From: Akkermansia massiliensis
GTDB taxonomy: Bacteria; Verrucomicrobiota; Verrucomicrobiia; Verrucomicrobiales; Akkermansiaceae
Length of the DNA stretch: 64,000 bases
NCBI RefSeq assembly: GCF_023516715.1
Contig: NZ_JAMGSI010000001.1
Coordinates: forward strand, 1,364,001 to 1,428,000
Direction: 5' to 3'
Below the pieces are notes generated by a model that was not told the origin of the DNA, made no database searches, and worked only from the letters and a program-made list of their open reading frames with translations. Below, in pieces: positions 23,200-27,274 of the stretch. The position numbers and the translations under genes are program-made. Every line of letters starts with the position of its first letter. Positions within the stretch are counted from its first letter, which is position 1.

Positions 23200-23700
23200 A
23201 TGAGTGAGAATCAGGATGAACTCAAAGTGCAGATCAAGGCTTGGCTGAAACAGCAGAACATCTCCCGCAATGATTTTGCGGAGGAATGCTTCGTGTCTCC
23301 CAACACGGTCCGCAACTGGCTTGCCAAGGTAGCCATTCCCAAAGACAAGGAAGCTCTCATCCGGCTCATGATGGAAAAGACGGAAAGGGAGAAAAAACTG
23401 AAGGAGGCGGCAAGAGCCCATTGGAAACCCTTCGCCGTCATGCTGAGCGCCGAGGATTACAAACTCATCGAAGAAGCCGCCAGAAGAGACAACATGACGG
23501 TGGAGGAATGGGCGGAAGCCACCCTGATCAAGGACGCCCAGAAGAGGATGAAGAATTATTACGACGACGAAAGCAGCCTCCCGAACGACATCCCTCTGGC
23601 AGCGGAAATTCCGGAGGAGTACGGCGCTCCCAGGCCTTCCTCCTCTTCCAGTTCCTCATTCTCCGAACCTTCTTCTCCCCGCCGCAAGCCTCGGCAATAA
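23200..23700 (+). CDS. HTH (Cro/CI-like) DNA-binding protein
   Basis: A 166-residue protein from ATG 23200 (MSENQDELKV); the frame is open to 23152 but the earlier 16 residues look non-coding. An N-terminal helix-turn-helix is visible: IKAWLKQQNISRNDFAEECF, then VSPNTVRNWLAKVAIP. A middle segment (FAVMLSAEDYKLIEEAARRD, then NMTVEEWAEATLIKDA) resembles a ribbon-helix-helix or second DNA-contact unit. The Ser/Pro-rich tail looks disordered. It faces the three-gene unit at 22.0-23.0 kb, so it may regulate that unit and itself. Confidence 0.7.
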   Translation: MSENQDELKVQIKAWLKQQNISRNDFAEECFVSPNTVRNWLAKVAIPKDKEALIRLMMEKTEREKKLKEAARAHWKPFAVMLSAEDYKLIEEAARRDNMTVEEWAEATLIKDAQKRMKNYYDDESSLPNDIPLAAEIPEEYGAPRPSSSSSSSFSEPSSPRRKPRQ

Positions 23701-23804: not shown

Positions 23805-23986
23805 CCTGTCAAGGCCCCGGGAACGGCTCAAACACTTGCGGCAACTGAAACCGGGATGGGGTTCCGCAAACGATTTAAAATACGCGTATCCGCAGGGCAC
23901 GATGGGGATATTAATTACCGCAGGGGCTTGCGCCGCTCCCGTCCGCTCTTTTTTCTTGCCTGACGTGTTAGAGGGGTTCTATCATA

Positions 23987-25579
23987 TTGACCATGAGACA
24001 ACTACTCTGCCTGCTGTTCATTTCCGCCTTCTGGCTTCCGCTTTCCGCCCGTGCGGAGGCGGCTCCGCCGGCCGTTCCCTCCATTGCCGTCAGGATGGTG
24101 CATCCGGACAGCCTGGAGCTGGACCGGGAAGGAAAACCGGTTCCGGAAGGATACACGCCTTATGTGTATGAATTCCGCGACCGCCACGGAAAGATGCAGC
24201 GGGAACGTCTGTTCCTGAAAGATGAACCGGTCATTACGGAGGCGGAGGTGGAACGGGCAGGCGTCGATCCGAGCAGACCGGAGCATCTCAACATCACCCT
24301 GAACACGCCGGGAGGGAGGGCCATGAAAACGGCTACATCCGCCATGAGGCTGGGACATGACAGGCTGGCTGTCGTCGTTCAGGGAAAAGTCAATTCGGCC
24401 CCGGTGGTTCAGGCCATTATTTCCCGTGCTTTTGAAATTTCCGGACTGGACGGGGAGAATGAAGCCGCCAACTTGGCGGAACTGCTCAACCACCGGGCCG
24501 CCACGGGGAAAACCACCCCTTTCATTCCGCGGGATCTGGCCCTGTACGTCATCCATCCGGAGAACGCCCGGCTGGTGGAAGAAGGGACGCTTTCCGTACC
24601 GGGCTACCGGCTCTGGAGCCGCCCGGGCGCGGAGGAAGAAAAAGACGCGGAGAAGGAATACCTGTTTCTGGGGAACGCCCCCATCGTCACCGGGGATTAC
24701 GCCCAGTCCGCACGCCCCAATCTGGATTATCCAGGGCATCTGGACATCGTTTGGAATGAAGAAGCGTACAGGAACCTGGAACAGGCCTGCGCCGCCCTCC
24801 GGCCCGGCAAGGACAGAATGGCCGTGGTCCTGCGCGGCGCCATCCTGTCTACGCCCGTATTCCATAAAATGCCTTCCCACGCCACCCTCATTCCCGTGCC
24901 GGGAGATGACCGCCAGCTGGATGCCCTCTGCGCGGCCATCAATACCCAGTTTCCGCCGCTCACGGAACAACAGCAGAGGAAGGTGAAAAAGAAGCTGGCC
25001 GTTTATCCCGTGCATCCCCGCAGCACGGAGCTGGAACAGCGGTTCCTCCCGGAACTCCGGCAAGGGAAAACCATTCATCTGAAAAGCGGGTTCCGCTCCA
25101 TCCCCTACACCCGCCCTGATTTCCCGGAGCCTGTTCCATCCTGGGCCTTTATCCGGCCGGAATCCCTGATCGGCCCGGAGGATATCCGGTACGCGGCACG
25201 GGAGCAGGACGGCACGATTACCTGCCAACTGCTGCCCCGTGCATGGGAAAAAATGCATGCCTTCATGGACGCAAGCCCTGCGGGAACCGTGGCCGTGGCG
25301 ATTGTCTTTCAGGGGAAGGTTCACCAGATGTTCAAGATCAGAGACAGCTTGCTGCAGATGTGGGGAATCCCCGTGATCACATTCATTCAGCCCATTTCCG
25401 TCATTTACATCCTCACTCCGGAAGAGGAACGGCGCATGCACCGGGAATTCCTGTATCACGTCTTCAGGGATATGCTGTTTCCCGTCAGCCCGTGGTTCTT
25501 TAAAAACTGCGTTCCTTTCCGTACGCTGGGCGAACAGAAGCCTTTTTTAATGATTGATTCGGGCCTGAACCGCCCCTGA
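23987..25579 (+). CDS. Secreted protein with three tandem SecD-P1-like units
   Basis: A 530-residue protein with a signal peptide (MRQLLCLLFISAFWLPLSARA; an alternative ATG lies at 23993) and no transmembrane segment. Three units of about 152 residues start near residues 35, 186 and 338, each with a V-H-P element (RMVHPDSLEL, YVIHPENARL, YPVHPRSTEL). Each is followed by a segment like the P1 head of SecD: PVITEAEVERAG, LNITLNTPGGRAMKTAT, RLAVVVQGKVNSAPVV, GENEAANLAELLN in unit 1; API-VTGDYA, RMAVVLRGAILSTPV in unit 2; LIGPEDIRYA, VAVAIVFQGKV in unit 3. SecD itself has six helices and one P1 domain, so this is a different architecture. A periplasmic, possibly Sec-related role is inferred. Confidence 0.7.
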   Translation: MTMRQLLCLLFISAFWLPLSARAEAAPPAVPSIAVRMVHPDSLELDREGKPVPEGYTPYVYEFRDRHGKMQRERLFLKDEPVITEAEVERAGVDPSRPEHLNITLNTPGGRAMKTATSAMRLGHDRLAVVVQGKVNSAPVVQAIISRAFEISGLDGENEAANLAELLNHRAATGKTTPFIPRDLALYVIHPENARLVEEGTLSVPGYRLWSRPGAEEEKDAEKEYLFLGNAPIVTGDYAQSARPNLDYPGHLDIVWNEEAYRNLEQACAALRPGKDRMAVVLRGAILSTPVFHKMPSHATLIPVPGDDRQLDALCAAINTQFPPLTEQQQRKVKKKLAVYPVHPRSTELEQRFLPELRQGKTIHLKSGFRSIPYTRPDFPEPVPSWAFIRPESLIGPEDIRYAAREQDGTITCQLLPRAWEKMHAFMDASPAGTVAVAIVFQGKVHQMFKIRDSLLQMWGIPVITFIQPISVIYILTPEEERRMHREFLYHVFRDMLFPVSPWFFKNCVPFRTLGEQKPFLMIDSGLNRP

Positions 25580-25627: not shown

Positions 25628-27274
25628 ATGGCAACACCGGATTTTCATTACCAGGATCCTTTTCCCATTGAAAAGGACGACACCCAGTACCGCCTCATCA
25701 CGTCCGACTACGTGAGCGTGGGTGACTTTGAAGGACACCCCATGCTGAAGGTGGAACCAGAGGGCCTGCGCCTGCTGGCCGCGGAAGCCTTCCATGACGT
25801 GGCCTTTTTCCTGCGCCCCGCCCACCTGAAGCAGGTGGCCGCCATTCTGGACGACCCGGAAGCCAGCGCCAATGACAAGAGCGTGGCCCTGACGATGCTC
25901 CGCAACGCGGAAGTGGCTTCCGCCGGAATCCTGCCCTTCTGCCAGGACACGGGCACCGCCACCATCGTGGGCAAGAAGGGCCAGCAGGTCTGGACCGGCT
26001 GCGATGACTGCGAACAGCTTTCCCACGGCGTTTACGACGCCTACACCCAGAACAACCTGCGCTATTCCCAGACCGTGGCGCTGGACATGTATACGGAAAA
26101 GAACACCGGCACCAACCTGCCCGCCCAGATTGACATTGAAGCCGTGGAAGGCATGAAGTACTCCTTCCTCTTCGTCGCCAAGGGCGGCGGCTCCGCCAAC
26201 AAGACCTACCTTTACCAGGAAACGAAGGCCCTGCTGAATCCGGCCACGCTGAAGAAGTTCCTGGTGGAGAAGATGAGCACGCTGGGCACGGCGGCCTGCC
26301 CGCCCTACCACATCGCCTTCGTCATCGGCGGCACATCCGCGGAAAAGTGCCTGAAAACCGTGAAGATGGCTTCCACCAAGTATTACGACAACCTTCCGAC
26401 CACGGGCAACGAGTACGGACGCGCCTTCCGCGACCTGGAGCTGGAAAAGGAACTGCATGAGGAAGCCTGCAAGCTGGGCCTGGGCGCCCAGTTCGGCGGC
26501 AAGTGGTACGCGCTGGACGTGCGCGTCATCCGCCTGCCCCGCCACGGAGCCTCCTGCCCGGTGGGCCTGGGCGTCTCCTGCTCCGCGGACCGCAACGCGA
26601 AGGCCAAGATCACGCCGGAAGGCATCTTCATTGAACAGCTGGAAACCAATCCCGGACAGTACATTCCGGAAGCGCTGCGCATGACCTCCAGCGAGGCCGT
26701 CTCCATTGACCTGAACCGCCCGATGAAGGAAGTGCTGGCGGAACTGAGCAAGTACCCCGTCACCACGCGCCTGAGCCTGAACGGCACCATCATCGTGGCG
26801 CGCGACATCGCCCACGCCAAGCTGAAGGAACGCCTGGAAAAGGGTGAAGGCATGCCCCAGTACATGAAGGACCATCCCGTGTACTACGCGGGTCCGGCCA
26901 AGACCCCGGAAGGGTATCCCTCCGGCTCCTTCGGCCCCACCACCGCGGGGCGCATGGATTCCTACGTGGACCTGTTCCAGGAAAACGGCGGCTCCATGAT
27001 CATGATCGCCAAGGGCAACCGCAGCCAGCAGGTGACGGACGCCTGCCAGAAGCACGGCGGCTTTTACCTGGGTTCCATCGGCGGTCCCGCCGCCATCCTG
27101 GCCAAGAATAACATCAGGAAGGTGGAACTGCTGGAATACCCGGAACTGGGCATGGAAGCCATCTGGAAGATTGAGGTGGAGGACTTCCCCGCCTTCATTC
27201 TGGTGGACGACAAGGGCAACGATTTCTTCGCAAAGATCCGCGAAGGCTGGGCCTGCGCCGGCTGCGCCCATTAA
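25628..27274 (+). CDS. Class I fumarate hydratase (4Fe-4S)
   Basis: Interconverts fumarate and malate in the TCA cycle or reductive branch. A 548-residue protein from ATG 25628 ([13 protein letters not shown]), length as for FumA/FumB. Typical segments: [17 protein letters not shown] (first cluster Cys), [20 protein letters not shown] (second Cys), [12 protein letters not shown]-like [16 protein letters not shown]. Oxygen-sensitive cluster enzymes of this class fit an anaerobic gut lifestyle. Single gene followed by a strong terminator. Confidence 0.93.

What the first reader, a model, noticed from the sequence alone, without database searches (positions are those of the whole stretch)
23987..25579. 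Secreted protein built of three SecD-P1-like units
Three about 152-residue units with a shared V-H-P start, and each with a stretch matching the P1 head of SecD (strand R-LAVVVQGKVNSAPVV and neighbours). Signal peptide, but no SecD membrane helices. It is a stand-alone use of a Sec translocase periplasmic domain and could help substrates leave the Sec channel, or work elsewhere in the periplasm.
Basis: partly seen in the sequence, partly recalled or inferred. Interest (0 to 1): 0.65.

Follow-up and report, generated by a model that had tools for sequence, protein, structure and literature searches.

The report
Exported protein of three SecD heads
An Akkermansia gene encodes what looks like an exported protein made of three copies of the part of the protein-export motor SecD that grips emerging proteins, without the membrane engine; it descends from the SecDF of its own genus, is kept by some relatives and lost by others, and hints that detached SecD heads are a recurring accessory of protein export.

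Summary
The 528-aa ORF (ATG 23993, stop 25579) has a signal peptide (by eye) and three head-to-tail units (V/I-H-P at residues 36, 187, 340). All three match the same stretch (residues ~190-334) of the genome's own 830-aa SecDF: the last P1-base strand, which carries V-H-P, plus the P1 head. Unit 1 is canonical (Pfam SecDF_P1_head 4.6e-16), unit 2 diverged, unit 3 strongly diverged (no Pfam hit; 0/300 shuffles reach its score). The modelled unit 1 superposes on SecDF P1 (Z 13.5). SecD's membrane part is missing. Among the 12 genomes with an 830-aa SecDF frame, 5 keep three intact units (65-82% identical); in 7 the gene is broken, cut to one unit, or a remnant. Other stand-alone P1 genes occur: nine genomes carry a base-plus-head protein head-to-head with secDF, and an outgroup has one 0.6 kb upstream of secDF. 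It is a new variant of a known domain; the tree suggests several origins from SecDF. Most likely it is an exported polypeptide-binding helper acting after Sec translocation; that function is inferred, and this gene is dispensable.

The parts
23956..23985 (+). promoter-like hexamers TTGCCT-18-TATCAT, close to the ATG
   Evidence: consensus scan only; not evidence of function
23993..25579 (+). CDS of the three-unit protein, 528 aa (P0001)
   Evidence: four other intact orthologues align over the full length
23993..24055 (+). signal peptide, residues 1-21 (MRQLLCLLFISAFWLPLSARA); cleavage site judged by eye
   Evidence: sequence, similar in orthologues; no signal-peptide predictor was run
24083..24535 (+). 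unit 1: strand with VHP plus P1 head, canonical
   Evidence: Pfam 4.6e-16; 60/140 identical to own SecDF 190-329; Z 13.5 to SecDF 5yhf over 124 residues, 3.7 A
24197..24490 (+). Pfam PF22599 SecDF_P1_head best match, residues 69-166
24536..24994 (+). unit 2: strand with IHP plus diverged P1 head
   Evidence: 40/142 identical to own SecDF 193-334; Pfam 2e-4, below cut-off; hhalign E 9.9e-24 to SecDF P1
24995..25576 (+). unit 3: strand with VHP plus strongly diverged P1-head-like domain with its own C-terminal tail
   Evidence: own SecDF score 63 against shuffle maximum 52; hhalign 84.5% and 91.6%; same order of strands and helices, with one extra short helix, in the full-length model; model of unit 3 alone is poor
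23200..23700 (+). flanking gene: small helix-turn-helix-like protein (name by eye), not part of the system
   Evidence: ORF; found beside the gene in the seven other loci checked
25628..27274 (+). flanking gene read here as class I fumarase (name recalled; the one family search that held it failed), not part of the system
   Evidence: ORF; found near the gene in the seven other loci checked

Best explanation
It is an exported protein of three tandem copies of the SecD P1 head, each with the preceding P1-base strand, descended from the P1 domain of a SecDF of its own genus and then multiplied in tandem (shown by sequence, profile and tree; the third copy less firmly). Lacking SecDF's membrane engine it cannot itself use the proton gradient. 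Most likely it works in the periplasm as a passive multi-site polypeptide binder: its heads, unit 1 above all, bind chains leaving the Sec channel, or partners that normally dock on the SecD P1 head (chaperones of the SurA/PpiD kind), and hold or pass on these chains (inferred). Units 2 and 3 have diverged and probably bind other partners or serve as spacer and anchor (inferred). It is an accessory and not essential.
For: All three units match one stretch of own SecDF; PF22599 over cut-off; structural match of unit 1 to SecDF (the model's alignment held six SecDF rows, so this is not independent of the sequence match). The tree puts the unit 1 and unit 2 clades among SecDF P1s of the same genus (fork 96/93). 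Constraint: dN/dS 0.2-0.5 in 27 of 30 unit-by-pair values. The P1 head is described as the substrate-binding part of SecD and as contacting PpiD (passages of PMC7793623 and PMC11470409), and SurA is predicted to dock on it (passages of PMC9987972). Other stand-alone P1 genes sit head-to-head with secDF in 9 of 9 genomes of one kind and 0.6 kb upstream of secDF in L112, which ties detached P1 domains to the Sec pathway.
Against: No binding or localisation data. This gene is not beside sec genes. Of 12 close genomes only 5 keep it whole. Units 2 and 3 lost many conserved P1 residues (14 and 11 of 27 kept). In the structural comparison only unit 1 was matched to SecDF; rows over unit 2 or 3 were unrelated folds with Z of at most 4.3. 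The SecD pulling cycle needs the membrane part, which is absent.
Confidence: 0.45

Rival explanations
1. Repurposed domain: the P1 head has been taken over for a job outside Sec, such as an envelope scaffold or partner-binding module in the periplasm.
For: No sec genes beside it; units 2 and 3 diverged; patchy distribution; whole-gene dN/dS of 0.30-0.40 in 9 of 10 pairs, higher than SecDF of a different clade of the genus (0.04-0.12).
Against: Unit 1 keeps 21 of 27 conserved P1 columns; other stand-alone P1 genes do lie beside secDF.
Confidence: 0.27
2. Trans regulator or decoy: the detached heads compete with SecDF's own head for substrates or chaperones, or report Sec activity, and so tune export.
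For: Head-to-head placing with secDF in nine genomes of the genus suggests joint control for those relatives; in Vibrio, secD2-secF2 expression is controlled by a secretion monitor (abstract openings in the listing).
Against: This gene is far from secDF (G000:C1 1.388 Mb against 0.340 Mb); no evidence of co-regulation.
Confidence: 0.13
3. Decaying paralogue with little present function.
For: Broken, cut or reduced to a remnant in 7 of 12 close genomes.
Against: Five intact copies with whole-gene dN/dS of 0.30-0.40 in 9 of 10 pairs (0.60 for the closest pair), over dS up to 0.83; the one-unit remainder in G004 shows dN/dS 0.37-0.38.
Confidence: 0.15

Closest known systems
SecD/SecDF P1 head (Pfam PF22599; Thermus SecDF 3aqo, 3aqp, 5yhf)
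   Same: Sequence, the fold of unit 1, the strand entering the head, and the V-H-P motif of the genus' own SecDF
   Different: Three copies in one exported-looking protein; most of the P1 base, the membrane helices and the SecF part are absent
Stand-alone P1 proteins of the genus (306-308 aa, L031-L035; 392 + 621 aa tandem in L117; 647 aa L116)
   Same: Proteins with P1 and too short for SecD's membrane part; hydrophobic N-termini by eye
   Different: The 306-308 aa proteins have one base-plus-head P1 and lie head-to-head with secDF; they and the G013 units fall elsewhere in the tree, so probably separate origins
Stand-alone P1-head proteins outside the genus (L112-L115; open frames of 168-229 aa)
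   Same: Signal or lipoprotein-like N-terminus and no membrane helices, both by eye; one P1 head
   Different: Single unit; L112's is 120/171 identical to the P1 region of the SecDF encoded 0.6 kb downstream

Membership tests
SecD / SecDF protein translocase subunit | P1 head domain | tested here: met
   PF22599 78 bits, cut-off 27; own SecDF match
SecD / SecDF protein translocase subunit | full-family model score (TIGR01129) | tested here: not met
   48.5 bits against cut-off 244.4
SecD / SecDF protein translocase subunit | RND-type membrane helices | tested here: not met
   two 19-residue windows of 1.6 or more after residue 25 (highest 1.74 at residue 456); own SecDF has 12 segments
SecD / SecDF protein translocase subunit | complete P1 base | tested here: not met
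   local alignments of all three units start at SecDF residues 190-193; only the last base strand is matched
SecDF P1-head domain (each unit) | unit 1 is a P1 head | tested here: met
SecDF P1-head domain (each unit) | unit 2 is a P1 head | tested here: met
   hhalign 99.6%, E 9.9e-24; own SecDF score 149, shuffle maximum 53; Pfam alone is below cut-off
SecDF P1-head domain (each unit) | unit 3 is a P1 head | tested here: inconclusive
   sequence and profile support but no Pfam or PDB-sequence hit, and the stand-alone model has low confidence (pLDDT 43.9) and no match at E <= 0.001
SecDF P1-head domain (each unit) | binds unfolded or exported chains | not testable with these tools
   needs a binding assay

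The most novel reading that the evidence does not exclude
Verrucomicrobiota, Akkermansia above all, repeatedly detach the SecD P1 domain and use it as a soluble or lipid-anchored exported factor that works in trans with SecDF, a distributed version of the Sec motor's hand; the triple-head protein is a multi-grip form of it.
Probability: 0.35. Interest if true: 0.75.

Novelty: new variant of a known kind. Interest (0 to 1): 0.5.

Why it matters
How SecDF's P1 head grips chains and hands them to chaperones is not settled. Naturally soluble heads without the membrane motor, one of them tripled, would be ready reagents to test head-substrate and head-chaperone binding apart from proton-driven pulling. 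Their likely repeated origin, and the head-to-head pairing of one kind with secDF, suggest an overlooked Sec accessory in Akkermansia and relatives.

Tried and rejected
Rejected: other folds for unit 1. Below SecD/SecDF, the rows for the full model had Z of at most 4.3. Units 2 and 3 were hardly tested there, since one domain fills the list; the rows over them were unrelated folds, Z at most 4.3, and I do not use them. The low-confidence model of unit 3 alone (pLDDT 43.9) gave no match at E <= 0.001; I do not use it for or against. A profile of unit 3 found nothing among PDB sequences at E <= 10.

Rejected: chance repeat, though unit 2 against unit 3 alone is not significant. Rejected: a fixed operon with sec genes. 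The neighbours are an HTH-like and a fumarase-like gene; in G040 the latter lies about 1.2 kb away.

Literature: searches for 'SecDF P1 head', for Akkermansia with SecD, for 'SecDF P1 head subdomain-containing', and combinations with paralog, unfolded, soluble or tandem. No listed title or abstract opening concerned a stand-alone P1-head protein; some searches listed only 20 of 61, 15 of 90 and 10 of 49 papers. Passages were read of PMC7793623, PMC9987972, PMC8669966 and PMC11470409, no whole paper. Most subscription papers are not in the library. A plasmid search with a 158-aa piece of the L114 head found only places annotated secD or secDF, or without annotation, among the 40 of 42 records listed.

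Caveats: the tree (53 rows from 38 of the 117 loci then held; domain E <= 1e-3 and at least 60 model positions) has long branches. It does not place the 306-308 aa proteins with their own SecDF, puts the 392-aa G013 protein with the SecDF of G015 on a branch of 3.76, and groups L113 with L114 (98/85), so separate origins are likely but not proven. Unit 3 is in the tree only for G067, on a branch of 3.61. G046 and L040 appear to be the same MAG contig (81,790 bases); its frameshift could be an assembly error. The genus name rests on that record's title. The four longer stand-alone candidates (316-402 aa: G007, G009, G022, G054) were judged by open-frame length alone, a contig-edge match in G076 was left out of the count, and in G065 the secDF frame is only 487 aa.

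Full report
What is there. The ORF at 23993-25579 (+) encodes 528 residues. The first-stage coordinates start two codons upstream at a TTG; the orthologues begin at the ATG or its equivalent. The N-terminus is a typical signal peptide by eye; no predictor was run. Three units follow, with V-H-P, I-H-P and V-H-P at residues 36, 187 and 340.

Are they SecD P1 units? Pfam finds SecDF_P1_head in the whole protein at 78 bits against a cut-off of 27; unit 1 alone 4.6e-16, unit 2 alone 2e-4 (below cut-off), unit 3 none. NCBIfam's SecD model scores 48.5 against a cut-off of 244.4. The genome's own SecDF (830 aa; L030, L039) contains LQILPVHPRNNEL just before its P1 head: the shared V-H-P start is simply the strand that leads from P1 base to P1 head in this SecDF. 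All three units align to that SecDF within residues 190-334: 60/140, 40/142 and 31/101 identical, scores 288, 149 and 63, against maxima of 53, 53 and 52 in 300 shuffles each. Self-comparison supports unit 1-unit 2 strongly and unit 1-unit 3 weakly, and does not support unit 2-unit 3 alone (27/500 shuffles). Profile-profile comparison puts unit 3 (7 rows) on P1 with 84.5% (ten SecDFs) and 91.6% (units 1, 2 and two SecDFs). With 5 rows the probabilities were lower (32% and 48% against SecDF sets, 61% against unit 2, 1% against unit 1), but no column shuffle of 150 reached the two scores tested. Of 27 positions conserved in at least 9 of 10 SecDFs, the units keep 21, 14 and 11.

Structure. A full-length model (19 rows, six of them SecDF P1 segments; mean pLDDT 72.9, pTM 0.41) shows the same order of strands and helices in the three units, with one extra short helix in unit 3; residues 451-468 and 505-528 are below 50. 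Foldseek's seven matches at E <= 0.001 are all SecDF. VIA-align gives Z 13.5, 3.7 A over 124 residues for unit 1 against 5yhf residues 110-249, and nothing outside SecD/SecDF above Z 4.3; units 2 and 3 were hardly tested in that list. A model of unit 3 alone, from 7 rows, is poor (43.9) and uninformative. There is no SecD-like set of membrane helices; a borderline hydrophobic stretch near residue 456 is noted.

Relatives. Among 76 genomes of the genus, 12 have a SecDF in an 830-aa frame; these are the close relatives. Five of the 12 (G000, G040, G043, G044, G045) have the intact three-unit gene, 65-82% identical to ours. Whole-gene dN/dS is 0.30-0.40 in 9 of 10 pairs and 0.60 for the closest pair; per-unit values run from 0.11 to 0.83, both extremes in the close pair G044-G045. 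In the other seven: frame broken in G046 (= L040) and G067; reduced to unit 1 in G004, with an out-of-frame C-terminal remnant, the unit at dN/dS 0.37-0.38; in G041 a signal peptide running straight into the last ~29 codons (by eye, L063), with the same 29-residue match in G042; and in G048 and G069 only short C-terminal remnants, read by eye from stretches similar to G004's. So 5 of 12 are intact. The HTH-like and fumarase-like genes are present in the seven other loci checked.

Detached P1 domains recur. A search with the 306-aa protein of L031 shows nine genomes (G005, G011, G012, G017, G020, G049, G057, G062, G065) with a 306-308 aa frame that aligns to SecDF over base and head; in 9 of 9 it is head-to-head with secDF on the same contig (in G065 the secDF frame is only 487 aa), the open frames 54-287 bp apart in the five measured. 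Four more genomes have 316-402 aa candidates on contigs other than secDF's. G013 has a tandem pair of 392 and 621 aa with one and two P1 units (L117), and G070 a 647-aa frame (L116). Counting stand-alone forms, damaged ones included and mere remnants excluded, at least 23 of 76 genomes carry one (8 + 9 + 4 + 1 + 1). Among 145 genomes of the phylum (match list cut) four outside the genus showed open frames of 168-229 aa with a P1 head (L112-L115); L112's lies 0.6 kb upstream of its own secDF frame and is 120/171 identical to it. The tree (53 rows) places both units of the 621-aa G013 protein with G013's SecDF (99/97), the L112 head with L112's SecDF (100/100), and units 1 and 2 of our family among SecDF P1s of the genus (96/93). 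It leaves the 306-308 aa proteins on a long branch away from their own SecDF, the 392-aa protein with another genome's SecDF on a very long branch, and L113 beside L114. Several origins from SecDF are thus likely, not proven.

How it may work. In the literature the P1 head is the substrate-binding part of SecD and moves with cation flow (passages of PMC7793623 and PMC11470409); it contacts PpiD (same passages), and SurA is predicted to dock on it (passages of PMC9987972). A head without the membrane part cannot pull, but could bind. I therefore favour an exported passive polypeptide- or chaperone-binding helper (0.45), over a job outside Sec (0.27), near-loss of function (0.15) and a decoy or regulator of SecDF (0.13). 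Shown: descent and anatomy (unit 3 less firmly), constraint, patchy loss, recurrence. Inferred: export, binding, any role.

Verdict. The finding is real and its anatomy was read correctly; the Sec role is open. New variant of a known kind; interest 0.5.

Noticed in passing
window 24065-24544 against L041-L044: Mosaic divergence: in the pair G000-G043, unit 1 has dS 0.65 while units 2 and 3 have 0.18 and 0.20, and unit 1 of G000 has a lower dS to G040 (0.49); suggests recombination within the gene.
   Followed up: partly
L031-L035, L118-L126: Stand-alone base-plus-head P1 protein head-to-head with secDF in nine genomes; in five compared, dN/dS 0.11-0.58, against 0.04-0.12 for SecDF in four of them.
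   Followed up: partly
L117:194-3125: Tandem genes of 392 and 621 aa with one and two P1 units in G013.
   Followed up: partly
L112:1872-2555: Lipoprotein-like (by eye) stand-alone P1 head about 0.6 kb upstream of the secDF frame, 120/171 identical to that SecDF; perhaps a recent copy.
   Followed up: partly
window 23200-23700: Small helix-turn-helix-like gene upstream, with several paralogues per genome (1 to 10 matches in 15 genomes).
   Followed up: no
L063:209-1360: In G041 a multi-span, acyltransferase-like ORF (by eye) lies convergent to and overlapping the end of the gene remnant, before the fumarase-like gene.
   Followed up: no
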